Shown in pieces: positions 35,401 to 64,000 of a stretch of 64,000 bases of DNA. The stretch's first letter is position 1, and every line of letters begins with the position of its first letter. The notes below the pieces were generated by a model. The model saw only the letters and a list, made by a program, of their open reading frames with translations. It did not search any database and had not been told where the DNA came from. This DNA is from Siniperca chuatsi (taxonomy: Eukaryota > Chordata > Actinopteri > Centrarchiformes > Sinipercidae), in the NCBI RefSeq assembly GCF_020085105.1, contig NC_058052.1:25436733-25500732 (forward strand), read 5' to 3'. Made by a program: the position numbers and the translations under genes.

Positions 35401-38400
35401 ACAACTAGTATAAAATCAGTTCTTCTAACCTGTTAAGAGTTCAAAGCTAGGATAACAAATTCAGGCTGCCTTTTCTTTTAAATTGAAATTGTTCAAGTAA
35501 AGCTTAATTGAATGTAAAATTATGAGGTCTGCTGTTTATTTTAACTTGTAAAAGATACAATTTGTTGGCGGCCTTCTAATATTCTGTTATTAATACTGTT
35601 GGTCTTGTTTCAGAGCAAACTCCTGTGTGCCCTCCGTACATTACATGCTGACATATTTCATTACTAGTTTTTTTTTTTAGTGTGGCCATCTATCTCCTTT
35701 AAAATGTCTTTATAGTTGCTCGTGCAAGAATCACCTCTCTCCATTTTTCTGTACAATTATACATGGCAATATAGCATACTGCAGGATATATCATGATAAT
35801 GGTATTTCAAACCCAAAAGTACCTGAATGAGAGAGAGTAAATAAAAGATTCAGTGAAAAAAGTAACTGTAAAAGTATTGTATTTAAGTACGGTTCTGAGA
35901 TACTTGTAAATTACTTGAATATTTCCATTTTATGCTCCTTTATACTTCTACTTAACTACATTTCAGAGGGAGATATTGTACTTTTTACTTCACTAGATTT
36001 ATTTGATAACTTTAGTTACTATGGCATGTGCTCAGTCCTTGTACTCCTGGACCTTAGACACAATCGACCACAGCATCCTGTTAGACAGACTGAGGCACTG
36101 GGTGGGGATATCTGGATCAGCCTTAGAATGGTTTTCATCTTTCCATTCGAATAGAAGGTTCTGTGTCTCTGTGAACAACTATTCATTTTCCTCTGTTGAG
36201 TATGGTGTGCCTCAGGGATCAGTTTTGGGACCAATTATATTTTCTTTATACATGCTTCCCCTTGGGCATGTTATTTATAGACATGGTGTCTCTTTTCATT
36301 TTTATGCTGATGATACGCAGATGTATCTGCCCGTTAGATCCACAGTGCTGAGTTCACTTAACAACTGTCTCTGTGATGTCAAAAACTGGATGTCAAAAAA
36401 TGTCCTTCAACTAAACTCAAACAAAACAGAGATCATTGCCATCGGGTCCCAGCACATGGCAAAACAAATTCTGCCATCTGCTGGTTACCTATTGGAACAC
36501 ATTAAGCCTGTTGCAAGGAATCTTGGCATCTGGTTTGATAATAATTTAAGTTTTGAGCAGCACACCACAAAGCTTGTGCAGTCGTGTTTTTATCATCTTA
36601 GAAATATATCAAAAATACGATCTATCTTAAGACACAGACACCATTTAACACGCCTTCATCTCATTACGCCGGGATTCCTGCAACAGCCTTTTTACTTGCC
36701 TCAACCAAAAATCTATTGATTATCGACTCCAGACTGTACAGAACTAAGCAGAACCAAGAAATGTGATCACATCACTCCTGTTTTAGCCTCTTTACACTGG
36801 CTCCCAGTATGTTTTAAAATAGATTTTAAGATTTTACTAATTACTTTTAAGGCTCTTCATGGCCTCTCTCCCTGCTATATCTCTGACCTCTTACCGTACC
36901 GTACTTTTTCTTGTTTTTTATGTTTTCTTTTCAAACCAGATGGTTTTATGACTTGCGTGTTTTATTTTGCTGCCTTTGTGAAGCACTTTGTAACATGGAT
37001 TTTGAAAAGTGCTCTATAAATAAAGATAATTATTATTATTATCATTACTAGTTACTTTGCAGATTCACATTAATAATACAAAATATAATCAACTAATAAG
37101 TTATTGTGTATTATTATAGGTTAAGATATAACACTTCAGAAGCTACACAGCAGTATATGAAGTAATTAACATTAGCTCTACCTTTAGCATCTGCAACATT
37201 AAAGTGATGTACACATTAATGCATCAATAATTATATAATGAAACATTATTCTGAAAAGGGCCATTCTGCATTATAAGTACTTTAAGTATATTTTGATGCT
37301 AATACTTTTTTGTTCTTTTACTTCAGTAACGTTTTGACTGCAGGACCTTTACTTTACTTGTAATAGAGTATTTCTGCACTGTGGTATTACTACTTTTACT
37401 TAAGTAAAAGATCAGAGTACTTCTTCCAGCACTGTATAAAACTGTATAAAATACAGTAAATGAATGCGGCTGACTGTGATTAGATGTCCATACAGGTGGT
37501 GTTTCTGTGTCTCCAGTACTTCCTGTATGGAATCTTCCTCAATCCTCTTTATGTCTGCAAGGTAAAAAACAGAAGTCAATATCATTTTGAATTCATGCTA
37601 TGTATAAAATATGATATTCAGGCCTACAGTCATATACAATCCCTCCCTCTGTCTCTCAGGCCTGGCCCTGTCCACATCCAGTGAACTGTTATGTCTCCAG
37701 ACCAACAGAGAAAAACATTTTCATAGTGTTCATGTTGGCTGTGTCGGCTGTCTCTCTGGTCCTCAGTGTGCTTGAACTGCATCACCTGGCATGGAGACGT
37801 TGCTGCAGGTAGAAACCCTGTGTGTACACATTCGTGGGGAGAGGTTTGAGTTTAAAAGACCATAATGGGGGCTTTGCATGTTTTGAAACCTTTAATCAAA
37901 CTGCATATACCCAACATTACTGCAGGTGATTTCCAAAGGCACTCTGTAAGATCTAAAAATGCCACAAAGCCATTTATGTATGTTTGTTAAGTTCTCTGAT
38001 GTCTGGAGAAATCCATGTTTAACATTAGTTAGTAAAAAACAAAAACAATGACACAGTGGGCTGTCATACTTTAAACCAATAAAACTACCCCATGAAGATG
38101 TTTCTACTGAGCCAAAAACCAACCAGGGGTGCTGTTTCTGGAGGGAGACATGTTTGAACTCACTGCCGATTAAAACATCCAAAGATCTTGTTATCCTGAT
38201 TTTGTCGACTAGATTTTCTCCAGAGATCTGGTTACAAAAGATGACACATTTTTAGATAGTCAGCTATTAGTTTCAGTTTGTGCTCTGACCTTATGAAAAT
38301 CAACTAGCAGTTTTGATACATATCTGAGATAAATAACCCAACATAGTGAGCGTCCCCTTTATTTAATGGTTAAAGTTACAGTATCATTGTCATGTTTGTT

Positions 38401-45056: not shown

Positions 45057-46177
45057 TCATGATGTTGCCGATTTAAGGTATGCAATGAGGTCCTGGCGCT
45101 CTCCCTTCTTCTTGATGCCAGCAAAGATCATTTTGGTTCCAGGAATGTACTTCTTGGGGTTCTCCAACAAGGTGTCCTCGCCCCACACAATACCTGGGAA
45201 AAAGACAGATGATCAGTGATGAAAGCAAGACAAACAATTTAATCAAGGCAACTAAGAGGGAAGTGACCTCCAAACTAGAAGGATAAGAGACCAGATATCA
45301 GTGGCCAAAGTTCAAGAGGCTACAGGCAATCGTTTAAAGCCTTAAGTATAAACTGCAGATCTTTGGGTTTTGAGCTGTTTGTTTAAGAAAAATTGAAGAT
45401 GTCACCTTGGACACACTTTTAGAAAAGTAAGAAAATGGCAGTAATCATTAGCTGCAGCCCTAAATGTAACTTAATTATATCTAACATACTGTAAGTAAAG
45501 AAATATTCACATCATTTCATTATTTGCCAGCATCAATCATTTATGTACTTTTGTAATAGAAAATAGCTCATGAAGATATTTACAAATAGTTAAAGAATTA
45601 TTAAGACCCCGTTACATCTTCATTTAATTATCTCTGCTTTGCACTAGCTTCATTCTAGCTGCATTTTCCCAGTTTGTAGTTATGTACCATTATTATTATT
45701 ATTGTTTTTTATGTATTTTATCATTCACTGTGGTATTTTATTTCTCTCTGTGAAGCACTTTGTTTTGATAAGTGCTCTATAAATAAAGTTTATTATTATG
45801 ATTATTATTATTAATTTGAAATATTTTGATGTCCTGTTTTGATAAGAGCTCTATAAAAACATTTATTATTATTATCATTATTATTATTATTATCATCATC
45901 TTGAAATATCTTGATGTCAACTTCAGAAAATGATGCCCCCCTCTTCACTTGTTCTATAGCCAAGGTAGAGGGTTATTCTAAACCTCATTTAACCACAAGT
46001 GAACTGACCTTTACTCTTGTTGGCATTCGTGTATGAGTAGCCCTCTGCCTGTCCAGTCTTGCATCCAAACAGACCCCAGAGGTTGGGGGCCACCTTGTGC
46101 TTGCTCCCCTGCTCTACTGTGTGGCACTGAGCATACTTCTGGACGAAAGCCTTCTTTCCCTTGGCAATGTGTCCCAT
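45057..46177 (-). pseudogene. Cytochrome c copy A: divergent, frame open, first heme cysteine lost
   Basis: Two exons in the cycs layout (46009-46177 and 45057-45193) still read through to 101 aa with good splice sites. The heme motif is YAQCH instead of CAQCH, so one thioether bond cannot form. Other changes at conserved sites against the intact gene are D3H, G25S, G30A, R39C and D51N, plus loss of three residues (EYL) from [10 protein letters not shown]. The axial ligands (His of CH, Met of GTKMIFAG) remain. No native promoter or non-coding first exon is present; the upstream intron runs into the large-ORF element at 46263. The intron holds an L2-like 3' tail (45695-45800), as in the intact gene. 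It is probably a pseudogene, though expression from the element side is conceivable. Confidence 0.8.
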
Positions 46178-46262: not shown

Positions 46263-49200
46263 TTTATGCATTTTTGTCTGGGCGTATTGTCAGGCCTAAC
46301 CTTTTGGGTCTTCTTATGCGATCTTCTCTCCTCTTGGGTTGACCCGGTGACTGGAGAGGAGTGCATTTTATCTTGGAAGTATTGACCCCTTACCCCTCCC
46401 CCGAGCTCCTCCTCCCATTCGTCGGTTTCCGAGTCGGAAAGCTTGCTTTTGTAAACAGGGGAATCCTGTTTCGGGCACGTGTGTTCTTAGCAGGCTTTGC
46501 TGTTTTACACCTCTTCTTAGACTTGTCCTGTCTCTTTCTCTCGCACGAGTCTTCTCTTCTCTTTCAGCGTGTGGGACATACGTCTCCTTTTCAGTCCTGC
46601 TACGATTCTTCTCTCTCTCCTTGGGCCTGCGGTTCTCCTTTATACGTTTGACGCGCTTTACAGCGGGCTTGATCAACTCCTCGTCAGATTCGGATGGCAG
46701 TGCACGCCTATACCCTCGTATGTCCACTTTTATATCACCACTACAGCCAGGCTCGGGGCAGTAGTCTTCTTTGGACTCTGAATGTGACACACGCTTATAC
46801 TTTCGATTAACATTCTTCCTCTTACACTTAGCCTTTTTCGCCCTCCTTTTAACTCTGCGCGCGAGAACGCCTCCACGTCCTCCTCCTCCCCTTCACTGCT
46901 GCATTCCTTCTCTGTAGGTCTGACGTCTATGAACTCGTCGCTGTATTCGTATTCGTCAGGACTCTCGCTGTTGTCGCAACCCATCGTAGCCTCCAAATCC
47001 TCACCGGGGATCTCATCTTCATCCTCCTCATCACACTCTTCCTCCCCGCTGGTCACTTCCACAGCCTTGCACAGCCAAGGGTGCTGGTCCTCGTACCTGG
47101 TGCGCGAGCTGTGTGCTTGTGAATTGCGAGCCTTCTTGTCGCTCTTGGACCCGGATGACTTAGAGGTTGAATGCTTATTTGACTTAGAAGACGTGCGATC
47201 TTGCTTCACCACTTTTGGGTGTTGCAAAGGTGCTTGTTTCTCAGGTCCACGTCTTTTGTCATGCAAACCGCTTTTATTGCATTGGGCGCTAGGGTTCCTC
47301 TTGTTGTACAGCTTAGTTACAAGCTGGTCCGAATGCCCCATGGATTGAACTGGGGTACCGTGGAAAGACATCAGTATCTTGCGTTTCCAGTTCACTGTGG
47401 ACATAGACGCTAAGCAATCCACGAGAGCTTTACTGAGTCTATCCTGCAACCCATACATATGGAGCACATTGACAACGGTTTGGTTGTTAATGACCCAATC
47501 TTGAAGGATGTCGCTGTGTCTACTATCCAGGAGAGTGTTATCTAATGCGAGGAGCGTGCAAACAGCTTCTCTCCTCAGAGGCTCATTGTTCAGCCAGGGT
47601 TCGCTCATCAGCAGAGTTGACATGTTCTTTATCCACGTCGAAATCGGAACGGATTCTGGTATCACGATAGAGTACAGACTGTCACCTCTCTCACTGATTC
47701 CGGTCATAGCACGGTCCTTGTTGCACTCCTCGACCTCAGCTGGACACTTAGAAGACACATCGGCATCATCTGCTGCGGTAGAGCGTGAGGACGTAGAGCT
47801 TGAGGAATACGGTCCACTCTGTGGATCACCGTGCTCTCCTACTCTTAGCTTCAGCCCTTTCTTCACTTTGTTGTGATGAGCGTGGAGTTTTAAAAAGAGC
47901 ACCTTAGCGTTGGCATACATCTGTACCAAATTCTTGTCCTTAATCTGGCTTGTATCATGTTTGATCAGGGCATGCCACATCTCACTGGCTTTGGCTGCGT
48001 TGTCCAGGGTCTGATCAGTGTACAACGCTTTGCACGCTGAGACCATTTTGGCGTCGCCGTTGTATCTCCTTTGACCGTAACTGGAGGCAATTTGGGCCAA
48101 ATCAGCCCAGTCCTTTGTCATCTGCTCCTCAACAATACTGATATGCTTCTTCTTCACAGCCGTGTGAATGGCGCTGTCAGAGGCGTACATGTTCCAAAAC
48201 CTCAGGTATTCTCTCACGTTCTCAATGGGACAATATAGCAGCTCGGCCACTGCGAACGCATTGGGGATCTTGCTGCCCATGAATTTAATGGCCAATTCCA
48301 CAACTTCGACCATGACAGGATCCTTAATCATGGTCTCAATGTGCCTGGGTATAAAATTGCACCAGCTGTTTGGATTAACACACTTGATGAAGGCTGTCAA
48401 TGCCGAATTGAGTATCACCTGATACATCAGGGGTCCGACTATAAAAGTCTTCCTGTTCAATTCCTGTATTGTGGCACAACAACTGCTTGCTAGTTCCCCA
48501 TATCCCTTGACAAAACACTGTTTGACGGCCCTGCAAAACCTCACCGTGGTAGACACGTACAGCTCAGGTTTCTCAACCTGTCCCTCTCTCAGGGTGGCAA
48601 CCGGGACCAGGTTCACCTTCTTGCCATCCAGTGACTTTCCGTTCCTTCTATAATAAACAGTACGAGTGCCACTGTTCGTGTAGTGGAAGTGCGTCAAATC
48701 ACATCTTACTTGGGTTTCGGTGAGACAATCCACGCTGCCCTCGCGTTTATTCTTCAACATTTCGGCCGTCTCTACCACGCAGCACATGGGGTGTATCTCG
48801 TCCATGTGAGAGACCACGGCTTCATTGTTGCTCTGGGTGCACGGGTTCTTGTCTTCGGTGCGCAGTAGCTGGGAAGGTTGGATTTCTTGAAAGCAAGGAA
48901 TAAGAGCTGTTAAGTGCGTGGGCACCTCTAGGGCCATGTCCCAGAATTCGAACTTGTTACCCGTGACCCCTTTCAGCAACTCGAGACTCTCGAGTCCCGG
49001 GACAAACAGTACCTCTTGCAAGAAGTACGAGTTCCCATTAGCTTTCCCGGTTTTCGGCATTTCTACGATGTAGGTTCCGATCATGGATCTGCTGCTGTCA
49101 TAGAAAATGAGATTGTGTGTTTCAGAGTACTGTGTGACCACAGGAATGACCTTCTTACCATTGGGGCTAACCAGCTCCTTATTCGGTATATAGAAGGCCG

Positions 49201-49698
49201 TGTATTTACCGCATCCCAGCAGCAAGTGTTTGATACCAGCCTTGTCTACACTTGCAATAGAGTCAAAGTCGTTCCCACCTTGAATGTCCACTAGGTCCAT
49301 AAGCGCACGCAACAGCAAGACTGAAGGTTTCTGCTGTATAGCTTCGGCGTCCTGGAGCACCATGTCCCTGATACTCTTGTATATGTTTTTCGGTTTATAC
49401 CTTTTCTCTCTTTCAGATAGTTCGTCTTGCTTGCACACCATAAGATCCGCCACTGTGTTGAACAATTCTTGTGTGCTTTCACAGTTAAACACATCTTTAT
49501 ACTTAAGTTTTGAATACCAGTTAGGGTGTTCTGTCACGATGAATGTAGGTTTTTTAACCTCCATGTCGTGCAGCTGAATAAAGCCACTCGGTTCCAATTA
49601 AATATAAAGTCCTGCAGTCTAAAAGCAACCAGCCTGCGTGACTCGAACCAGTTGTGCACCTCCCAAAGCCTCAGAGGATCTAATGCAGATGTGGCTTG
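46263..49698 (-). mobile_element. Unrecognised virus-like or selfish element carrying a large intron-less ORF, copy 1 (fossil)
   Basis: This unit begins where cyc copy A loses homology to cycs intron 1. It ends where the 3' flank of cyc copy B begins. It carries a long intron-less reading frame (ATG at 49597) on the minus strand, in a more GC- and CpG-rich context than its surroundings. The protein matches no family I can name; see the sister copy at 54787-58222 for its layout. This copy looks broken, with about one break. It is nearly identical to the sister copy (about 2% of residues differ by eye), so the duplication is young. The unknown lineage could be a large DNA-virus relative. I do not claim a family. 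Confidence 0.6.
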
Positions 49699-49777
49699 CA
49701 TATATTTAGCATGTGCAAGCCTAAGAATAAACAAAAACAATAAAATGGCATTAAATATTCAGATTTTTATGACTAGC

Positions 49778-50830
49778 TCATGATGTTGCCGATTTAAGGA
49801 ATTCAATGAGGTCCTGCCGCTCTCCCTTCTTCTTGATGCCAGCAAAGATAATTTTGGTTCCAGGAATGTACTTCTTGGGGTTCTCCAGGTACTCCAACAA
49901 GGTGTCCTCGCCCCACACAATACCTGGGAAAAAGACAGATGATCAGTGATGAAAGCAAGACAAACAATTTAATCAAGGCAACTAAGAGGGACGTGACCAC
50001 CAAACTAGAAGGATAAGAGACCGGATATCAGTGGCCAAAGTTCAAGAGGCTACAGGCAATCGTTTAAAGCCTTAAGTATAAACTGCAGATCTTTGGGTTT
50101 TGAGCTGTTTGTTTAAGAAAAATTGAAGATGTCACCTTGGACACACTTTTAGAAAAGTAAGAAAATGGCAGTAATCATTAGCTGCAGCCCTAAATGTAAC
50201 TTAATTATATCTAATATTGTGTAAGTAAAGAAATTTTCACATCATTTCATTATTTGCCAACATCAATCATTTATGTACTTTTGTAATACAAAATAGCTCA
50301 TGAAGATATTTACAAATAGTTAAAAAATTATTAAGACCCTGTTACATCTTCATTTAATTATCTCTGCTTTGCACTAGCTTCATTCTAGCTGCATTTTCCC
50401 AGTTTGTAGTTATGTACCATTATTATTATTATTGTCTTTTATGTATTTTATCATTCACTGTGGTATTTTATTTCTCTCTGTGAAGCACTTTGTTTTGATA
50501 AGTGCTCTATAAATAAAGTTTATTATGATTATTATTATTATTAATTTGAAATATCTTGATGTCATGTTTTGATAAGAGCTCTATAAAAAACGTTTATTAT
50601 TATTATTATCATCATCATCATTATAATCATCTTGAAATATCTTGATGTCAACTTCAGAAAATGATGCCCCCCTCTTCACTTGTTCATGACATAACTGATC
50701 AATAGGAAGAATAAAAGTTTACCTTTGTGGGATGAAACTATGCGGGGTTAAAATCACTCAGGTGCCGGTATGAGCTGCTTCTCTCAGGCGATGAGCGGTT
50801 TCTGGCGGTCGTAAAGAAGGTCACTTCACT
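49778..50830 (-). pseudogene. Cytochrome c copy B: last coding exon, intron piece and first non-coding exon only
   Basis: The last cycs exon (49778-49923) encodes [20 protein letters not shown] and [10 protein letters not shown] with open frame. The intron follows with its L2-like tail (about 50460-50600). At about 50690 the sequence jumps to the cycs non-coding first exon region (exon from 50723, donor GT at 50722-50721). The exon with the start codon and heme site is missing. The CRE-bearing promoter of the intact gene is also gone; at about 50835 the homology runs into piggyBac-like sequence. It cannot encode a cytochrome. Confidence 0.85.
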
Positions 50831-50869
50831 AGTGTCCAACCACGCATGAGGCAATACTTAACTTGGACA

Positions 50870-51077
50870 AAAACAAACCAAAACATCTGATAATTACCGG
50901 GGTTAGTGAAAGCAAGACAGCAAACACTCCCCGCCTGGATATAACAAAATGCAGTTCCATAGACATTGCATGGCTCTTGTGCCCACGTAGAAAACGGACA
51001 AAGTGTGCAAACATAGTGTGCTTCAGGTGTAAGCAATACATCTGCAAAGCCTGTGCTCCGAGGTGTTTGTTTCCCCC
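50870..51077 (+). pseudogene. piggyBac-like transposase C-terminal cysteine-rich domain, remnant 1
   Basis: The plus-strand frame reads ANTPRLDITKCSSIDIAW and then LCPRRKRTKCANIVCFRC followed by KQYICKACAPRC. This C-x2-C spacing with CPRRKRTK fits the cysteine-rich C-terminal domain of piggyBac (DDE_Tnp_1_7) transposases. Only this end is present; the catalytic DDD domain is not in the window. It runs directly into a LINE 3' end at about 51078. A shorter second remnant is at 58865-58928. Assignment is from motif pattern alone. Confidence 0.45.
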
Positions 51078-51186
51078 GTTTGTTAGTTTTGGTAAAAGTC
51101 ATGATGTTACACACTCCAATACAGTAGGGCGCGGCATGCAGCTTTAACGTTGGTTTGTAGCCCGCCAGTAAAATCGAAGAAGAAGT
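51078..51186 (+). mobile_element. LINE 3'-end fragment with (GAA)n tail
   Basis: Reverse complement of the 52345-52470 segment (GTTTGTTAGTTTTGG, ACACTCCAATACAGTAGG, CGTTGGTTTGTAGCCCGCC), ending in GAAGAAGAAG. It is strongly 5' truncated. Confidence 0.75.
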
Positions 51187-51229
51187 CTAGTGACAGCTTC
51201 AAAACTGTAGGAATTTACACAATTTACTT

Positions 51230-52267
51230 ACTACCCTAGCCAAAGCATCCAACCACGGCTAATGTCTCCAAATAAAATATCCACCAACCACGGCTAAAGT
51301 ATCAACTAAGGTATCAGCCAACCATGACAGCTAAAGTATCAACGATCACGGCTAAGTATTCAACTAAGGTATTAGCCAACGACCACGGCTAAATATCAAC
51401 GACCACGGCTAATCCAAACACCACGGCTAAAATATCCAACAACCACGGCTAAAGTATCAACGATCACGTCTAAAATATCTAACAACCACGGCTAAAGTAT
51501 CAACGATCACGGCTAAAATATCTAACAACCACGGCTAAAGTATCAACGATCACGGCTAAAATATCCAACAACCACGGCTAAAGTATCAACGATCACGGCT
51601 AAAATATCCAACAACCACGGCTAAAGTATCAACGATCACGGCTAAAATATCCAACAACCACGACTAAAGTATCAACGACCACGGCTAAAATATCCAACAA
51701 CCACGGCTAAAGTATCAACGATCACGGCTAAGTATTCAACTAAGGTATTAGCCAACGACCACGGCTAAAGTATCAACGATCACGGCTAAGTATTCAACTA
51801 AGGTATTAGCCAACGACCACGGCTAAAATATCCAACAACCACGGCTAAAGTATCAACGATCATGGCTAAAATATCCAACAACCACGACTAAAGTATCAAC
51901 GATCACGGCTAAGTATTCAACTAAGGTATTAGCCAACGACCACGGCTAAGCTAAGCTAAGTTAACCAACCACCACGGCTAAGTATCCAACCACCACGGCT
52001 AAGTACCAACCACCACGGCTAAGTATCCAACCGCGGCTAAGCTATCCAACCACGGCTAAGCTCCAACCACCACGGCTAACCAACCACCACGGCTAAGTAT
52101 CCAACCACGGCTAAGCTAAGCTAACCAACCACCACGGCTAAGTATCCAACCACCACGGCTAAGTATCCAACCTCGGCTAAGCTAAGCTAACCAACCACCA
52201 CGGCTAAGTTTCCAACCACCACGGCTAAGTATCCAACCGCGGCTAAGCTAACCAACCACCACGGCTA

Positions 52268-52319
<52 letters not shown>

Positions 52320-52335
52320 ACGGCTAAGTTTCCAA
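51230..52335. repeat. CCACGGCTAA minisatellite, about 1.1 kb, containing a 47-nt T tract
   Basis: Dozens of CCACGGCTAA cores alternate with spacers such as AGTATCAACGAT, AATATCCAACAA and GTATTCAACTAAGGTATTAG. The unit length is therefore mixed (about 18-40 bp). The right part shifts to ACCACCACGGCTAAGTATCC units. A run of 47 T occupies 52270-52316. Short related arrays occur at 58243-58400 (CCACAGCTATGTATCCAA) and 63405-63475, beside the intact cycs promoter. Confidence 0.95.
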
Positions 52336-52344
52336 CTAAGGGAT

Positions 52345-52752
52345 TCGTTTCTTCTTCTTCGATTTTACTGGCGGGCTACAAACCAACGTTAAAGCTGCAT
52401 GTCGCCACCTACTGTATCGGAGTGTGTAACATCATGACTTTATCCAAAACTAACAAACGGGGTGGGGTTGGAGATAAATAAATATTTATACTTTATAGAG
52501 ATTTTATATCCTAGATATTATAGCTGTTTCTTTTAACTATTTGAATAAAAGCCCTTTGAACCTGTAACTGTTTATCTCCTGTCTGTAACAGACCTTTGAT
52601 GCTCCACTCCCTGCCCATCTCTACTACTCTGCCCTTCAGTCTTTCTCTTTCTACATTGAACCTCCTACATCCCATCCGCACATGTTCAACAGATTCCTTA
52701 CAGTTACAAGTCTCACATTTATCTGACACTGGCTTTTTCATGGTATACAAGG
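52345..52752 (-). mobile_element. LINE 3' end with C-terminal ORF2 fragment, copy 1
   Basis: On the minus strand the frame 52750-52511 gives KPVSDKCETCNCKESVEHVR followed by MGCRRFNVERERLKG. This is the C-x2-C-x7-H-x4-C knuckle found near the ORF2 C-terminus of RNase-H-bearing LINEs of I/Nimb-like clades. The 3' UTR (GGCGACATGCAGCTTTAACG on that strand) and a GAA-rich tail follow. It is 5' truncated, and a near-identical copy lies at 63549-63964. Confidence 0.65.
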
Positions 52753-52889
52753 TTGCATTGAGTTATGTGCATATAGGTTCAGGCCTGATTGCATACATTT
52801 CAAGTGCTTGTGTAAAATAAGGTGTTTCAAATGACAATATCCTATGGTCCTGGTTTTAATTCATTACGCTCACACAATATTTGTGACAC

Positions 52890-53420
52890 AAATATAAGCA
52901 ACCGTGTTCTGCGAGCTCCCTCATCATGAACATGATGTGGACTATGCCGCTGTGTCACAAATTGCCTATGACACGGCGTTATTCTATGTTTCTTTATACC
53001 GAGTTAAGATACAGACACAATGGTACATTTCAACAGGTGTTTTATTCGTTCAGGTGTACAATATAGTGGTGACACTAAACACGTCTGCATGACAAAACTT
53101 CGTTAGCGTCCTGTCCAACCTCTGCTCAGCATACAAATTCACCGCTCACCAATGCACAGTGACAGAAAGGCAAATAAGAACATATAGCCCACAATGTTCT
53201 TAATTGGTTCCAAATGTCCTTCATGCCATAATTAACAGCCCCCTCGTTCAAGCTCTTGTGCATCTTATTCAGATACGTGAAATAGGTTCTGTGCACATAC
53301 GAGCTCTGGTGTATCTCGTGCACAACGTTTTTCCCTCTATCGTTACACTCAACAGCGATCAAGGTCTTGAATCTATGGTAGCTTGATATCATCACGTTGA
53401 AAGTCAATTTGTCAAAGTGC
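52890..53420. mobile_element. Fragment of uncertain origin with two facing small frames (possible element debris)
   Basis: This block interrupts sequence that is otherwise cyc 3' flank. It is absent from the equivalent place of copy A, and the flank at 60545-60730 lacks it too. The minus-strand frame (53488-53126) includes FKTLIAVECNDRGKNVVHEI and GAVNYGMKDIWNQL, with an AATAAA at 53046-53041. A plus-strand frame (52904-53092) faces it. I recognise neither; they may be debris of the same foreign source as the large-ORF element. Confidence 0.35.
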
Positions 53421-53685
53421 AGATTGACCAAAAAACAAACAAAACGGACTATAGTTTTATGTTCAGCCACTTGAACGATTGCTCGCACCCTGAGCTTAAA
53501 GCAGAAGTGACACTTGGTGTGAACTCACTGGCTCACAAGAAGTGCCATTTTCTAACCATCAACAACCTAAATTAACCTTATGTACAAATGACTAAACATA
53601 AAACCACATATTTAGCATGTGTAAGCCTAGGAATAAACAAAAAAACAATAAAATGGCATTAAATATTCAGATTTTTATGACTAGC

Positions 53686-54701
53686 TCATGATGTTGCTGA
53701 TTTAAGGTATGCAATGAGGTCCTGGCGCTCTCCCTTCTTCTTGATGCCAGATCATTTTGGTTCCAGGAATGTACTTCTTGGGGTACTCCAGGTACTCCAA
53801 CAAGGTGTCCTCGCCCCACACAATACCTGGGAAACAGACAGATGATCAGTGATGAAAGCAAGACAAACAATTTAATCAAGGCATGGCAGGAATTGAAGAT
53901 GTCACCTTGGACACACTTTTAGAAAAGTAAGAAAATGGCAGTAATCATTAGCTGCAGCACTAAATGTAACTTAATTATATCTAACATACTGTAAGTAAAG
54001 AAATATTCACATCATTTCATTATTTGCCAGCATCAATCATTTATGTACTTTTGTAATAGAAAATAGCTCATGAAGATATTTACAAATAGTTAAAGAATTA
54101 TTAAGACCCCGTTACATCTTCATTTAATTATCTCTGCTTTGAACTAGCTTCATTCTAGCTGCATTTTCCCAGTTTGTAGTTATGTACCATTATTATTATT
54201 ATTATTGTTTTTTATGTATTTTATCATTCACTGTGGTATTTTATTTCTCTCTGTGAAGCACTTTGTTTTGATAAGTGCTCTATAAATAAAGTTTATTATT
54301 ATGATTATTATTATTAATTTGAAATACCTTGATGTCATGTTTTGATAAGAGCTCTATAAAAACGTTTATTATTATTATTATCATTATCATCATCATCATT
54401 ATTATTATTATTATTATTATCATCTTGAAATATCTTGATGTCAACTTCAGAAAATGATGCCCCCCTCTTCACTTGTTCTATAGCCAAGGTAGAGGGTTAT
54501 TCTAAACCTCATTTAACCACAAGTGAACTGACCTTAATTCTTGTTGGCATTCGTGTATGAGTAGCCCTCTGCCTGTCCAGTCTTGCATCCAAACAGACCC
54601 CAGAGGTTGGGGGCCACCTTGTGCTTGCTCCCCTGCTCTACTGTGTGGCACTGAGCATACTTCTGGACGAAAGCCTTCTTTCCCTTGGCAATGTGTCCCA
54701 T
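53686..54701 (-). pseudogene. Cytochrome c copy C, pseudogene
   Basis: Same two-exon layout (54533-54701 and 53686-53826) and the same derived residues as copy A (H3, YAQCH, S25, A30, C39, N51). It therefore shares copy A's ancestor. The first exon ends in a stop codon two residues before the splice site. The second has a 5-bp deletion (frameshift) within [10 protein letters not shown], and much of the intron next to it is deleted. It is joined upstream to the second large-ORF copy. Confidence 0.9.
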
Positions 54702-54786
54702 AGTCAGCTGGAGAAACAAAGAGAGGGCAAACAGGACAGACGGAAGTCAGAAGTGTAATTATGACAAATTGTAATATTCTGTAACA

Positions 54787-57700
54787 TTTATGCATTTTTG
54801 TCTGGGCGTATTGTCAGGCCTAACCTTTTGGGTCTTCTTATGCGATCTTCTCTCCTCTTGGGTTGACCCGGTGACTGGAGAGGGAGTGCATTTTATCTTG
54901 GAAGTATTGACCCCCTTACCCCTCCCCCCGAGCTCCTCCTCCCATTCGTCGGTTTCCGAGTCGGAAAGCTTGCTTTTGTAAACAGGGGAATCCCGTTTCG
55001 GGGTACGTGTGTTCTTAGCAGGCTTTGCTGTTTTACACCTCTTCTTAGACTTGTCCTGTCTCTTTCTCGCACGAGTCTTCTCTTCTCTTTCAGCGTGTGG
55101 GACATACGTCTCCTTTTCAGCCCTGCTACGATTCTTCTCTCTCTCCTTGGGCCTGCGGTTCTCCTTTATACGTTTGACGCGCTTTACAGCGGGCTTGATC
55201 AACTCCTCGTCAGATTCGGATGGCAGTGCACGCTTATACCCTCGTATGTCCACTTTTATATCACCACTACAGCCAGGCTCGGGGCAGTAGTCTTCTTTGG
55301 ACTCTGAATGTGACACACGCTTATACTTTCGATTAACATTCTTCCTCTTACACTTAGCCTTTTTCGCCCTCCTTTTAACCTGCGCGCAGAACGCCTCCAC
55401 GTCCTCCTCCTCCCCTTCACTGCTGCATTCCTTCTCTGTAGGTCTGACGTCTATGAACTCGTCGCTGTATTCGTATTCGTCAGGACTCTCGCTGTTGTCG
55501 CAACCCATCGTAGCCTCCAAATCCTCACCGGGGATCTCATCTTCATCCTCCTCATCACACTCTTCCTCCCCGCTGGTCACTTCCACAGCCTTGCACAGCC
55601 AAGGGTGCTGGTCCTCGTACCCGGTGCGCGAGCTGTGTGCTTGTGAATTGCGAGCCTTCTTGTCGCTCTTGGACCCGGATGACTTAGAGGTTGAATGCTT
55701 ATTTGACTTAGAAGATGTGCGATCTTGCTTCACCACTTTTGGGTGTTGCAAAGGTGCTTGTTTCTCAGGTCCACGTCTTTTGTCATGCAAACCGCTTTTA
55801 TTGCATTGGGCGCTAGGGTTCCTCTTGTTGTACAGCTTAGTTACAAGCTGGTCCGAATGCCCCATGGATTGAACTGGGGTACCGTGGAAAGACATCAGTA
55901 TCTTGCGTTTCCAGTTCACTGTGGACATAGACGCTAAGCAATCCACGAGAGCTTTACTGAGTCTATCCTGCAACCCATACATATGGAGCACATTGACAAC
56001 GGTTTGGTTGTTAATGACCCAATCTTGAAGGATGTCGCTGTGTCTACTATCCAGGAGAGTGTTATCTAATGCGAGGAGCGTGCAAACAGCTTCTCTCCTC
56101 AGAGGCTCATTGTTCAGCCAGGGTTCGCTCATCAGCAGAGTTGACATGTTCTTTATCCACGCCGAAATTGGAACGGATTCTGGTATCACGATAGAGTACA
56201 GACTGTCACCTCTCTCACTGATTCCGGTCATAGCACGGTCCTTGTTGCACTCCTCGACCTCAGCTGGACACTTAGAAGACACATCGGCATCATCAGCTTC
56301 GGTAGAGCGTGAGGACGTAGAGCTTGAGGAATACGGTCCACTCTGTGGATCACCGTGCTCTCCTACTCTTAGCTTCAGCCCTTTCTTCACTTTGTTGTGA
56401 TGAATGTGGAGTTTTAAAAAGAGCACCTTAGCGTTGGCATACATCTGTACCAAATTCTTGTCCTTATTCTGGCTTGTATCATGTTTGATCAGGGCATGCC
56501 ACATCTCACTGGCTTTGGCTGCGTTGTCCAGGGTCTGATCAGTGTACAACGCTTTGCACGCTGAGACCATTTTGGCGTCGCTGTTGTATCTCCTTTGACC
56601 GTAACTGGAGGCAATTTGGGCCAAATCAGCCCAGTCCTTTGTCATCTGCTCCTCAACAATACTGATATGCTTCTTCTTCACAGCCGTGTGAATGGCGCTG
56701 TCAGAGGCGTACATGTTCCAAAACCTCAGGTATTCTCTCACGTTCTCAATGGGACAATATAGCAGCTCGGCCACTGCGAACGCATTGGGGATCTTGCTGC
56801 CCATGAATTTAATGGCCAATTCCACAACTTCGACCATGACAGGATCCTTAATCATGGTCTCAATGTGCCTGGGTATATAATTGCACCAGCTGTTTGGATT
56901 AACACACTTGATGAAGGCTGTCAATGCCGAATTGAGTATCACCTGATACATCAGGGGTCCGACGATAAAAGTCTTCCTGTTCAATTCCTGTATTGTGGCA
57001 CAACAACTGCTTGCTAGTTCCCCATATCCCTTGACAAAACACTGTTTGACGGCCCTGCAAAACCTCACCGTGGTAGACACGTACAGCTCAGGTTTCTCAA
57101 CCTGTCCCTCTCTCAGGGTGGCAACCGGGACCAGGTTCACCTTCTTGCCATCCAGTAACTTTCCGTTCCTTCTATAATAAACAGTACGAGTGCCACTGTT
57201 CGTGTAGTGGAAGTGCGTCAAATCACATCTTACTTGTGTTTCGGTGAGACAATCCACGCTGCCCTCGCGTTTATTCTTCAACATTTCGGCCCTCTCTACC
57301 ACGCAGCACATGGGGTGTATCTCGTCCATGTGAGAAACCATGGCTTCATTGTTGCTCTGGGTGCACGGGTTCTTGTCTTCGGTGCGCAGTAGCTGGGAAG
57401 GTTGGATTTCTTGAAAGCAAGGAATAAGAGCTGTTAAGTGCGTGGGCACCTCTAGGGCCATGTCCCAGAATTCGAACTTGTTACCCGTGACCCCTTTCAG
57501 CAACTCGAGACTCTCGAGTCCCGGGACAAACAGTACCTCTTGCAAGAAGTACGAGTTCCCATTAGCTTTCCCGGTTTTCGGCATTTCTACGATGTAGGTT
57601 CCGATCATGGATCTGCTGCTGTCATAGAAAATGAGACTGTGTGTTTCAGAGTACTGTGTGACCACAGGAATGACCTTCTTACCATTGGGGCTTACCAGCT

Positions 57701-58222
57701 CCTTATTCGGTATATAGAAGGCCGTGTATTTACCGTATCCCAGCAGCAAGTGTTTGATACCAGCCTTGTCTACACTTGCAATAGAGTCAAAGTCGTTCCC
57801 ACCTTGAATGTCCACTAGGTCCATAAGCGCACGCAACAGCAAGACTGAAGGTTTCTGCTGTATAGCTTCGCGGCGTCTGGGCACCATGTCCCTGATACTC
57901 TTGTAGATATTTTTCGGTTTATACCTTTTCTCTCTTTCAGATAGTTCGTCTTGCTTGCACACCATAAGATCCGCCACTGTGTTGAACAATTCTTGTGTGC
58001 TTTCACAGTTAAACACATGTTTATACTTAAGTTTTAAATACCAGTTAGGGTGTTCTGTCACGATGAATGTAGGTTTTTTAACCTCCATGTCGTGCAGCTG
58101 AATAAAGCCACTCGGTTCCAATTAAATATAAAGTCCTGCAGTCTAAAAGCAACCAGCCTGCGTGACTCGAACCAGTTGTGCACCTCCCAAAGCCTTAGAG
58201 GCTCTAATGCAGATGTGGCTTG
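54787..58222 (-). mobile_element. Unrecognised virus-like or selfish element with a 1,120-codon ORF, copy 2 (fossil, frame looks whole)
   Basis: The minus-strand frame from 58121 to 54759 has no introns and encodes 1,120 aa starting MEPSGFIQLHDMEVKKPTFI. Residues 1-600 look globular, with no signal peptide or membrane span. About 610-650 is serine-rich. About 790-850 is Lys/Ser-rich. About 850-930 is strongly acidic (EEECDEEDEDEIPGED, EGEEEDVEAF). From 930 to the end it is very basic, with nuclear-localisation-like runs (KRRAKKAKCKRK, KPAVKRVKRIKENRRPK). Acidic-then-basic tails suggest a nuclear, chromatin- or nucleic-acid-associated role, but that is inference. The last residues and stop lie in cyc intron DNA, 58 bp before the ATG of cyc copy C on the same strand. 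I see no capsid, polymerase, RT or integrase motif. A Teratorn-like herpesvirus-piggyBac origin is possible but unproven. Confidence 0.6.
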
Positions 58223-58242
58223 TGTAAGGGCTTTTATGTGTT

Positions 58243-58400
58243 AGCTATGTATCCTACCGCGGCTAAGAATGTGTATCCAGCCACAGCTATGTATCCAACC
58301 ACAGCTATATATCCAACCACAGCTATGTATCCGACCACAGCTATATATTCAACCAGTTATGTATCCAACCACAGCTATGTATCCGACCATGGCTATGTTG
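58243..58400. repeat. Short minisatellite CCACAGCTATGTATCCAA, related to the 51-52 kb array
   Basis: About eight units of 17-20 bp differing from the large array by A/G and T/A changes in the core. It directly follows the 5' end of the large-ORF element. Confidence 0.85.
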
Positions 58401-60817: not shown

Positions 60818-61872
60818 TCATGATGTTGCCGATTTAAGGTATGCAATGAGGTCCTGGCGCTCTCCCTTCTTCTTGATGCCAGCAAAGATCATTTTGGTTC
60901 CAGGAATGTACTTCTTGGGGTTCTCCAGGTACTCCAACAAGGTGTCCTCGCCCCACACAATACCTGGGAAAAAGACAGATGATCAGTGATGAAAGCAAGA
61001 CAAACAATTTAATCAAGGCAACTAAGTGGGAAGTGACCTCCAAACTAGAAGGATAAGAGACCGGATATCAGTGGCCAAAGTTCAAGAGGCTACAGGCAAT
61101 TGTTTAAAGCCTTAAGTATAAACTGCAGATCTTTGGGTTTTGAGCTGTTTGTTTAAGAAAAATTGAAGATGTCACCTTGGACACACTTTTAGAAAAGTAA
61201 GAAAAACGGCAGTAATCATTAGCTGCAGCACTAAATGTAACTTAATTATATCTAATATACTGTAAGTAAAGAAATATTCACATCATTTCATTATTTGCCA
61301 ACATCAATCATTTATGTACTTTTGTAATAGAAAATAGCTCATGAAGATATTTACAAATAGTTAAAAAATTATTAAGACCCTGTTACATCTTCATTTAATT
61401 ATCTCTGCTTTGCACTAGCTTCATTCTAGCTGCATTTTCCCAGTTTGTAGTTATGTACCATTATTATTATTATTGGTTTTTATGTATTTTATCATTCACT
61501 GTGGTATTTTATTTCTCTCTGTGAAGCACTTTGTTTGGATAGGAGCGCCATAAATAAAAAGTTAATAATAAATAATTATTATTATTCTTATCATCCTCAA
61601 ATATCTTGACGTCAACTTCAGAAAATGATGCCCCCCTGTTCACTTGTTCTATAGCCAAAGGAGAGTGTTATTCAAAACCTCATTTAACCACAAGTGAACT
61701 GACCTTTACTCTTGTTGGCGTCCGTGTATGAGTAGCCCTCCGCCTGTCCAGTCTTACGTCCAAACAGACCCCAGAGGTTGGGGCCCACCTTGTGCTTGCC
61801 CCCCTGCTCTACTGTGTGGCACTGAGCACACTTCTGGACGAAAGCCTTCTTTCCCTTGGCAATGTCTCCCAT
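60818..61872 (-). CDS. cycs: Cytochrome c, somatic (intact)
   Basis: Electron carrier between respiratory complexes III and IV in the mitochondrial intermembrane space, and the trigger of apoptosome assembly when released. Exons 61704-61872 and 60818-60963 join at the conserved vertebrate position (codon 57) to 104 aa. The start is [25 protein letters not shown] binds heme through both cysteines and the histidine, and Met in GTKMIFAG is the other axial ligand. The end is [16 protein letters not shown] non-coding first exon is at about 63181-63290. The intron between the coding exons contains an L2-like LINE tail (about 61440-61600) shared by the damaged copies, so it predates the duplications. 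This is the only copy in the cluster with all key residues and a promoter, hence the likely working gene. Confidence 0.97.
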
Positions 61873-63180
61873 AGTCAGCTGGAGAAACAAAGAGAGGGCA
61901 AACAGGACAGATAGAAGTCATTAATGTAATTATGACAAATTGTAATATTCTGTAACAACATAAATCATACCCATACTCTGAATAATAATGTGTGTGAATT
62001 TAGATCCATAAATGCATCTTCTATTCATAGAAGACAGATATGGCAGAAGGCTCATTCACTGCTCTACTCTGACCGGCGCCATCTTGTGAAGGTCGTTTAA
62101 GGTGATAACTTTTACTGGACTAGGAGCACCGCTTTCTTAACACTGCATTCAAACAAATCATGGCCTTTCCCTGTGTACTGGCACCCTGCCGAGGTCGTTT
62201 CATGGAAATCAAACCAGAAACCTGCACTGGAAACAGCACCAACCCGCCCTTAGAAACACGTTAGCTTACATTCGCGCACTATTAATAGCGTCTCATTCTT
62301 CGCAGCCTCAGCTCAGGTTATGTCACAAGAAAAGCTTGTCAATTAAATAAGGTTTGTTTTAATAGTATCACGCTGTGGAGTTTTAGCTTTAATATGTCGC
62401 TCTTGTCAAGGGGAGCCAATGAGTTTAGGTTTAAAAAAGCCAACATTAATGTACTTAACTAACGTTAAAAAGGTGTGGTAATAATAACGTGCCAATGTGG
62501 CAGAGGACTGACCGGTGTAATGCCGAAATGCGTTTCCTTGCATGTTTTGTCCTCAAATTACTGACGGGGAAGCCTTTACAATGCTAGAATAACTAGCTAA
62601 TTCACTTTTGCTAAATTAGGCTGACGTCCGTCGGGCATTTAGCATCAAGGACATACGGTACTGTCAAACTGAAAGCAGCTTCCTTACAGACAGGTAGCTT
62701 TAATGTGGCATTTACGCACACATTTTGTTTTTAACAAGACAAAGCTCACTGAGCTATAACGTTAGCTAGGCCTAGTTAGCATGCTAGTAAGGTTAGCCGG
62801 GGATGTGTCACCCATCCAGGCTGTCAAGGATGCTTCAATGTCGGTGTCCGAATATCGCACTCAACACTGATTTATTTGCTAGCTAACTAGCTAGCTAACA
62901 TCTTTTCCATGAGACACTGAGAACGTCTGGCGAGCTTAAATAAGTTAACAATAATTCAATCAAACATAAAATTACCGCATTACTCCTGAATTTTGGTCTA
63001 GGCTGATTAGCCATTTTAGTTCACGCAGAGAGCAACCGAGCTATTCACCAACATGGGAGCTAACGTTAGCTAAATGCTACCACAAATACTTTCAGCCGCC
63101 CAGCATCATTTTGAATAATAAAGCCACAAAAGCCAGTTTGTATTTGACATAACTGATCAATAGGAAGAATAAAAGTTTAC

Positions 63181-63340
63181 CTTTTGATTAAAATATGCGG
63201 GGTTAAAATCACTCAGGTGCCGATATTAGCTGCTTCTCTCAGGTGATGAGCGGTTTCTGGCGGTCGTAAAGAAGGTCACTTCACTTTAGAGGCACCGGCT
63301 TTTGACGTCATCATCCAATCCCTCTGAATCGTGACGTGTT
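63181..63340 (-). promoter_or_regulatory. cycs: cycs non-coding first exon and CRE/CCAAT promoter
   Basis: A donor (AAAAG then GTAAAC, with its GT at 63180-63179) ends a non-coding exon that would splice to the acceptor 18 bases before the cycs ATG. Just upstream lie a perfect palindromic CRE TGACGTCA (63303-63310), an inverted CCAAT box (63315-63319) and a second half-CRE TGACGT (63332-63337). Mammalian cytochrome c promoters are known to respond to CREB through such sites. The intron 61873-63180 holds no other gene that I can see. Confidence 0.75.
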
Positions 63341-63404
63341 TCCTTCTAGCCGATCGAGTCCGCCCCATTTCTACGAAGAGACGCTTCCTTGCCCAACTTC
63401 CAAC

Positions 63405-63475
63405 GGCCACGGCTAAAGTATCCAGCTAAGGTATTAGCCAACCACCACGGCTAAAGTATCCAACCGACCACGGAT
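63405..63475. repeat. Short CCACGGCTAA array beside the cycs promoter
   Basis: Three to four cores (CCACGGCTAAAGTATCC and variants) of the same family as the 51-52 kb array. It is followed by the GAGGCAATA-to-GGGGTT segment shared with the piggyBac-like remnants. Confidence 0.85.
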
Positions 63476-63548
63476 AAGGCAATACTTAACTTGGACAAAA
63501 ACAAACCAAAACATCTGATAATTACCGGGGTTTGTGAATGCAATCGTC

Positions 63549-63964
63549 TTCTTCATCTTCGATTTTACTGGCGGGCTACAAACCAACGTTAAAGCTGCAT
63601 GTCGCCACCTACTGTATCGGAGTGTGTAACATCATGACTTTGTCCAAAACTAACAAACGGGGTGGGGTTGGAGATAAATAAATATTTATACTTTATAGAG
63701 ATTTTATATTCTAGATATTATACCTGTTTCTTTTAAATATTTGAATAAAGCCCTTTGAACCTGTAACTGTTTATCTCCTGTCTGTAACAGACCTTTGATG
63801 CTCCACTCCCTGCCCATCTCTACTACTCTGCCCTTCAGTCTTTCTCTTTCTACATTGAACCTCCTACATCCCATCCGCACATGTTCAACAGATTCCTTAC
63901 AGTTACAAGTCTCACATTTATCTGACACTGGCTTTTTCATGGTATACAAGGTTGAGTCCTGCAT
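63549..63964 (-). mobile_element. LINE 3' end with C-terminal ORF2 fragment, copy 2
   Basis: Near-identical to 52345-52752 and in the same orientation (minus). It carries the same KPVSDKCETCNCKESVEHVR knuckle and 3' UTR. At the left edge the GAA-type tail reads CTTCTTCATCTTC on the plus strand. Homology with copy 1 ends near 63955. Confidence 0.65.
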
Positions 63965-64000
63965 GTCCTTGTCTTAGCCTAGAAAAGGTTGTGGGTTGAA

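What the first reader, a model, noticed from the sequence alone, without database searches (positions are those of the whole stretch)
46263..58222. A 1,120-residue orphan protein in two copies, each welded to a cytochrome c pseudogene
The intron-less ORF has no recognisable domain. It has a strongly acidic then very basic tail, and in both copies sits in the upstream intron of a cyc copy on the same strand, with its stop 58 bp before the cyc ATG. The offset between copies is 8,524 bp at the cyc exon, at the ORF start and at the element edge. The element therefore landed once and the composite was duplicated recently. The second copy keeps a whole frame. The first looks broken, about one break. 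The source may be a large DNA virus or an unknown mobile element.
Basis: partly seen in the sequence, partly recalled or inferred. Interest (0 to 1): 0.85.

Follow-up and report, generated by a model that had tools for sequence, protein, structure and literature searches.

The report
Dead herpesvirus gene fragment beside cytochrome c
A fish chromosome carries, twice, the same cut-off piece of a gene that most likely came from a herpesvirus-like virus, joined to broken copies of the cytochrome c gene; a fuller remnant of a related virus lies on another chromosome, so the mystery protein looks viral rather than a new kind of mobile element.

Summary
The two copies, the 8,524-bp offset, the lack of known domains and the joining to cyc pseudogenes are real. 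The 'intact 1,120-residue protein' is not. Foreign DNA covers 54787-58222 (copy C) and 46263-49698 (copy A); the frame is cut at the 3' junction, and its last 8 codons plus stop are read from cyc intron. Of 22 homologs, 14 run 38-145 residues further. The family is 32-67% identical to this copy; all 10 homologs with a named host are teleost, 12 are unnamed. In the same genome, four related matches lie on contig C3 within a ~70-kb GC-rich, ORF-dense block with a family-B DNA polymerase, ubiquitin hydrolase, kinase, dsRNA-binding, MHC-I and PYRIN domains: an endogenous large DNA virus, most likely a Teratorn-like alloherpesvirus, though no capsid, terminase or piggyBac gene was recognised there. 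The window piece comes from another viral lineage (47-59% identical to the C3 pieces). It stands in place of the 5' region of a cyc duplicate; the composite was then duplicated. Since then it shows no protein-level constraint (18 nonsynonymous, 9 synonymous codons) and copy A is frame-broken. Verdict: a captured viral gene relic, a new member of a known kind.

The parts
54787..58222 (-). Viral fragment, copy C (foreign DNA; 5' limit uncertain, at most 58243)
   Evidence: Host homology ends at 54786; similarity with copy A ends at 58222; minisatellite from 58244
46263..49698 (-). Viral fragment, copy A
   Evidence: 98.8% identical to copy C over 3,432 aligned bases, six small length differences
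54759..58088 (-). Open frame of copy C from its conserved ATG; 54759-54786 is host intron (last 8.3 codons and stop)
46730..49564 (-). Open frame of copy A from the ATG to its frame break
54533..54701 (-). cyc pseudogene exon of unit C (YAQCH, stop at exon end)
46009..46177 (-). cyc pseudogene exon of unit A (YAQCH)
61704..61872 (-). Parent-like cyc exon of unit D (CAQCH kept)
49699..53604 (-). Unit B: cyc 3' part, no coding exon 1, no viral piece; keeps a copy of parent 63145-63285 and an expanded minisatellite

Best explanation
The ORF is a truncated, non-functional relic of one gene of an endogenous large DNA virus of fish, most likely a Teratorn-like alloherpesvirus. SHOWN: a cyc duplicate carries a ~3.4-kb foreign piece where its 5' intron and upstream region should be; the reading frame is cut at the 3' junction; cyc plus viral piece exist twice with a B unit between them; the two copies differ without sign of protein-level constraint; a related gene sits in a ~70-kb viral block elsewhere in the genome. 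INFERRED: the piece entered by end-joining or microhomology repair of viral DNA in the germ line, or is what a larger provirus left after deletion; loss of the cyc 5' region silenced that copy; unequal exchange between cyc units copied the composite. In the virus the full protein (about 1,050-1,325 aa, folded N-terminal ~740 residues and a charged, probably disordered tail) was perhaps a nuclear regulatory or replication-associated protein; this rests on size and charge only.
For: Eight own-genome matches: window copies and four C3 matches. The C3 block (about 31752.5-31822.0 kb) has GC mostly 0.46-0.59 against 0.35-0.49 in most bins outside and dense ORFs, with DNA_pol_B E 2.4e-10, UCH, dsrm, MHC_I E 1.7e-22, Pkinase and PYRIN in 3 of 73 ORFs. 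Three relatives of the polymerase are 1,590-1,619 aa, the size of the AciHV-3 alloherpesvirus polymerase gene, 4,863. Two of five named hosts of those polymerases (Larimichthys, Scophthalmus) are on the published list of Teratorn-like hosts. Teratorn has ZFP36-, TARBP- and kinase-like genes. Junction. Drift since duplication: codon positions 13/15/12, 18 nonsynonymous and 9 synonymous of 900 codons. Past constraint against C3: third positions 0.50-0.56, others 0.21-0.32. CpG o/e 0.70 against 0.33 in the window's first 44 kb.
Against: No terminase, capsid or piggyBac family was recognised among 73 C3 ORFs of 150 aa or more (Pfam, PHROGs). None of the 15 polymerase hits is named as an alloherpesvirus, and in the PDB profile search (60 of 100 matches shown) cellular polymerase delta ranks first and no chain shown is named as herpesvirus. 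RING and CCCH matches are below Pfam's cut-offs. IMG/VR has no relative of the protein. 12 of 22 homologs have no named host. The neutral expectation for 18:9 was not computed, and four adjacent changed codons may be one event.
Confidence: 0.77

Rival explanations
1. The donor is a large DNA virus or giant element of fishes outside Alloherpesviridae, an undescribed lineage with a B-family polymerase, MHC-I and PYRIN genes; the capture history stays the same.
For: No alloherpesvirus hallmark gene was recognised in the C3 block, and the polymerase profile is not closest to any chain named as herpesvirus among those shown.
Against: Polymerase length and host overlap fit alloherpesviruses; gene repertoire resembles Teratorn. 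A 2018 survey reported Teratorn-like viruses as the only herpesviruses integrated in teleosts.
Confidence: 0.15
2. The ORF is a host-domesticated viral gene, for example a truncated regulator that interferes with related viruses.
For: Copy C is still open over 1,120 codons with its ATG, and a related virus is in the same genome.
Against: Differences between copies are even over codon positions with 18 nonsynonymous to 9 synonymous; copy A is frame-broken; the end is host intron.
Confidence: 0.03
3. The ORF is a host retrocopy or an unknown small mobile element.
For: Single uninterrupted frame in both copies.
Against: Own-genome relatives lie in a viral block, no intron-bearing parent was found; the gene is cut at the 3' side, keeps its start and 134 bp of leader, and runs into host intron without poly-A; no edge-pairing inverted repeats, no TTAA at the edges, two copies of the leader.
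Confidence: 0.05

Closest known systems
Teratorn and Teratorn-like alloherpesviruses of teleosts (PMC5601938, PMC5822658, PMC10175614; named sections read)
   Same: Endogenous in many teleosts; B-family polymerase; kinase-, dsRNA-binding- and zinc-finger-type accessory genes; dense single-frame ORFs, as in the C3 block.
   Different: Complete Teratorn is ~180 kb with herpesvirus core genes and a piggyBac transposase; here one gene fragment, and a ~70-kb C3 remnant in which no capsid, terminase or piggyBac gene was recognised.
Chromosomally integrated acipenserid herpesvirus 3 of sturgeon (PMC12031113, passages seen)
   Same: An endogenous alloherpesvirus; polymerase gene size (4,863) fits the C3 polymerase relatives.
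   Different: A whole virus genome of 184 kb, not a single captured gene piece.
Endogenous viral elements in general (recalled)
   Same: An isolated, decaying piece of a viral gene caught in host DNA.
   Different: Here it replaced the 5' part of a host gene duplicate and was then duplicated with it.

Membership tests
Endogenous viral element (fragment) | Sequence of viral origin fixed in a host chromosome | tested here: met
   Both junctions lie in assembled host sequence; relatives in a viral block on C3
Endogenous viral element (fragment) | Incomplete and drifting | tested here: met
   3' truncation; no third-position excess between copies
Teratorn-like alloherpesvirus (donor) | Virus carries the alloherpesvirus core genes (capsid, terminase, helicase, polymerase and others) | tested here: inconclusive
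   Polymerase present in the C3 relative; no terminase or capsid family recognised, but no alloherpesvirus reference proteins were at hand
Teratorn-like alloherpesvirus (donor) | piggyBac transposase fused to the virus | tested here: inconclusive
   No piggyBac family among 73 ORFs of 150 aa or more in the C3 block; the genome-wide query did not complete
Teratorn-like alloherpesvirus (donor) | Found in teleosts only | tested here: inconclusive
   10 of 22 homologs have named hosts, all teleost; 12 are unnamed
piggyBac/Teratorn insertion (window piece) | TTAA target site and terminal inverted repeats at the edges | tested here: not met
   No TTAA in 54760-54815 or 58190-58255; no edge-pairing inverted repeats of 12 nt or more in either copy
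Host retrocopy | Intron-bearing host parent, 3' poly-A, 5' truncation | tested here: not met

The most novel reading that the evidence does not exclude
The family belongs to an undescribed lineage of endogenous large DNA viruses of fishes outside the alloherpesviruses, whose genomes carry MHC-I and PYRIN genes and whose large charged-tail protein has no recognised fold.
Probability: 0.15. Interest if true: 0.7.

Novelty: new member of a known kind. Interest (0 to 1): 0.36.

Why it matters
It gives a likely home to a family of large 'hypothetical proteins' in teleost annotations: they belong with endogenous herpesvirus-like DNA. The locus also records an order of events (cyc duplication, capture of viral DNA with loss of the cyc 5' end, duplication of the composite), datable once the species and its rate are known. 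Two diverged homologs in one genome imply two viral lineages in one fish.

Tried and rejected
Domain and sequence libraries: Pfam, NCBIfam and PDB sequence searches found nothing credible. IMG/VR scans with the protein and with the family alignment confirmed no relative; a scan with the C3-polymerase alignment gave 19 loci at 22-27% identity. Folds: a full-length model (mean pLDDT 45.8) and one of residues 12-760 (62.6) gave no Foldseek match at E <= 0.001 in BFVD, nor the second one in the PDB.

Rejected: intact orphan gene (truncated, host-read end); autonomous mobile element; host retrocopy. Lead not testable here: by size and nearness to the polymerase the protein could be the conserved alloherpesvirus ORF56 product (4,383 in AciHV-3); that ORF56 neighbours the polymerase gene is recalled. 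At least two longer ORFs lie between them in C3, so it stays a lead.

Papers: sections 8, 11 and 13 of PMC5601938, part 1 of section 4 of PMC5822658, section 5 and part 1 of section 8 of PMC10175614 with passages, passages of PMC12031113; other papers only as listings with abstract starts. Searches: 15 of 18 listed; none found; 8 of 24; 12 of 39; 5 of 2,769. No listed title or abstract start was about this protein family or a cyc-herpesvirus junction; that is not proof that none is in print.

Full report
WHAT IS THERE. The window is C11:25436733-25500732 of a 718.8-Mb, 65-contig genome; cyc and the homologs make it a teleost, species not identified. On the minus strand it holds a tandem series of cytochrome c units: parent-like D (exon 61704-61872, CAQCH), composite C, unit B without a first coding exon or viral piece, and composite A. 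The composites carry the ORF of the finding. Over the viral piece they differ at 42 of 3,432 aligned bases plus six small length differences. D and C introns are about 93-95% alike, A and C units 98.2% over 4,338 columns, so the cyc duplication came before the duplication of the composite.

WHERE THE FOREIGN PIECE BEGINS AND ENDS. Host intron is shared up to A 46262, C 54786 and D 61957. The stop of the ORF (54759-54761) is on the host side of that edge, so the frame leaves foreign sequence after about codon 1,112 and runs through 8.3 host codons to a chance stop. In the family alignment 14 of 22 homologs continue 38-145 residues past this point; the other 8, all models of 542-985 aa, end before it or within 3 residues (the tail aligns loosely, so the numbers are approximate). 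On the 5' side A and C share 134 bp above the ATG, found only in these two places in the genome, and then part; in C a minisatellite like that of unit B follows at 58244. Parent sequence 61958-63398 found no counterpart in unit C, while unit B keeps a copy of 63145-63285. The viral piece thus stands in place of the cyc 5' region rather than simply inside an intron. No inverted repeats pair the edges and no TTAA lies at them.

WHAT THE PROTEIN IS. Domain libraries and PDB sequences are silent. One search found 14 homologs beside the window's own copy A; a profile search raised this to 22. Ten have named hosts: Dallia, Larimichthys, Collichthys, Chaenocephalus, Channa (four), Sarotherodon and Lota, all teleosts; twelve are unnamed. 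Identity to the window copy is 32-67%. That the long homologs are single frames is inferred, since no genomic context is given; in the window and on C3 the frames were seen directly. IMG/VR held no confirmed relative.

THE SOURCE. The own-genome search gave eight rows: two window copies, two rows overlapping copy A, and four rows on C3 between 31764103 and 31793350, at 47-59% identity. Around them is a block of about 70 kb (31752.5-31822.0 kb) with GC mostly 0.46-0.59 and dense long ORFs; outside, bins of 2.5 kb lie mostly at 0.35-0.49. Pfam finds a B-family DNA polymerase, ubiquitin hydrolase and dsRNA-binding domain, with RING and CCCH fingers below cut-off, MHC class I and a kinase, and PYRIN in 3 of 73 ORFs. 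The polymerase lies about 3.6 kb from the first piece of the gene. Its 15 database relatives are fish-borne or unnamed; three are 1,590-1,619 aa, the size of the AciHV-3 polymerase gene (4,863). Two of their five named hosts, Larimichthys and Scophthalmus, are on the published Teratorn list; Teratorn carries ZFP36-, TARBP- and kinase-like genes. I conclude: endogenous large DNA virus (very likely), Teratorn-like alloherpesvirus (likely). Against the second step: no terminase, capsid or piggyBac family among the 73 ORFs, no hit named as alloherpesvirus, and polymerase delta ranks first in the PDB profile search (60 of 100 matches shown).

TWO VIRAL LINEAGES. The window piece is 49-58% identical to the C3 pieces but 67% identical to an unnamed homolog, so it did not come from the C3 provirus. 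The polymerase was found once in the genome, on C3.

DEAD OR ALIVE. Between C and the C3 pieces differences concentrate at third codon positions (0.50-0.56 against 0.31-0.32 and 0.21-0.30), a mark of past constraint. Between A and C they are even (13/15/12), with 18 nonsynonymous and 9 synonymous changed codons of 900; four of these codons are adjacent and may be one event, and a formal neutral expectation was not computed. Copy A is frame-broken. CpG o/e is 0.70 against 0.33 in the window's first 44 kb: a viral composition not yet eroded, or little methylation.

FUNCTION IN THE VIRUS. AlphaFold on residues 12-760 gives a partly confident model (mean pLDDT 62.6, 240 of 749 residues below 50) without a structural neighbour at E <= 0.001. 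The acidic-then-basic tail suits a nuclear, nucleic-acid- or chromatin-associated role; this is inference. Identity with alloherpesvirus ORF56 is an untested lead.

VERDICT. A relic of one herpesvirus-type gene, captured beside cytochrome c and duplicated with it: a new member of a known kind (endogenous viral elements), useful mainly because it points to a viral origin for an unannotated teleost protein family.

Noticed in passing
G000 C3:31752500-31822000 (L019 end, L009-L013, L020, L021): A ~70-kb endogenous large-DNA-virus block with polymerase, MHC-I, ubiquitin hydrolase, kinase, dsRNA-binding and PYRIN domains; pieces of it are repeated and rearranged within the block.
   Followed up: partly
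Channa striata proteins P0020, P0023, P0025: Three homologs with near gene numbers (Q5P01_010533, _010539, _010560) on one contig length (28.66 Mb), suggesting a local cluster of copies in that fish.
   Followed up: no
52345-52755 and 63544-63954: A 98.3% identical pair, closer than most of the cyc units; the second overlaps an 89-aa frame (63704-63973, -) that by eye resembles the end of a LINE-type reverse transcriptase.
   Followed up: no
51273-52272: Expanded minisatellite (unit like CCAACCACCACGGCTAAG) in unit B; similar short arrays at 63399-63478 and 58244-58395 mark the cyc upstream region.
   Followed up: partly
35997-36719: A 240-aa frame that by eye looks like a LINE reverse transcriptase fragment.
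   Followed up: no
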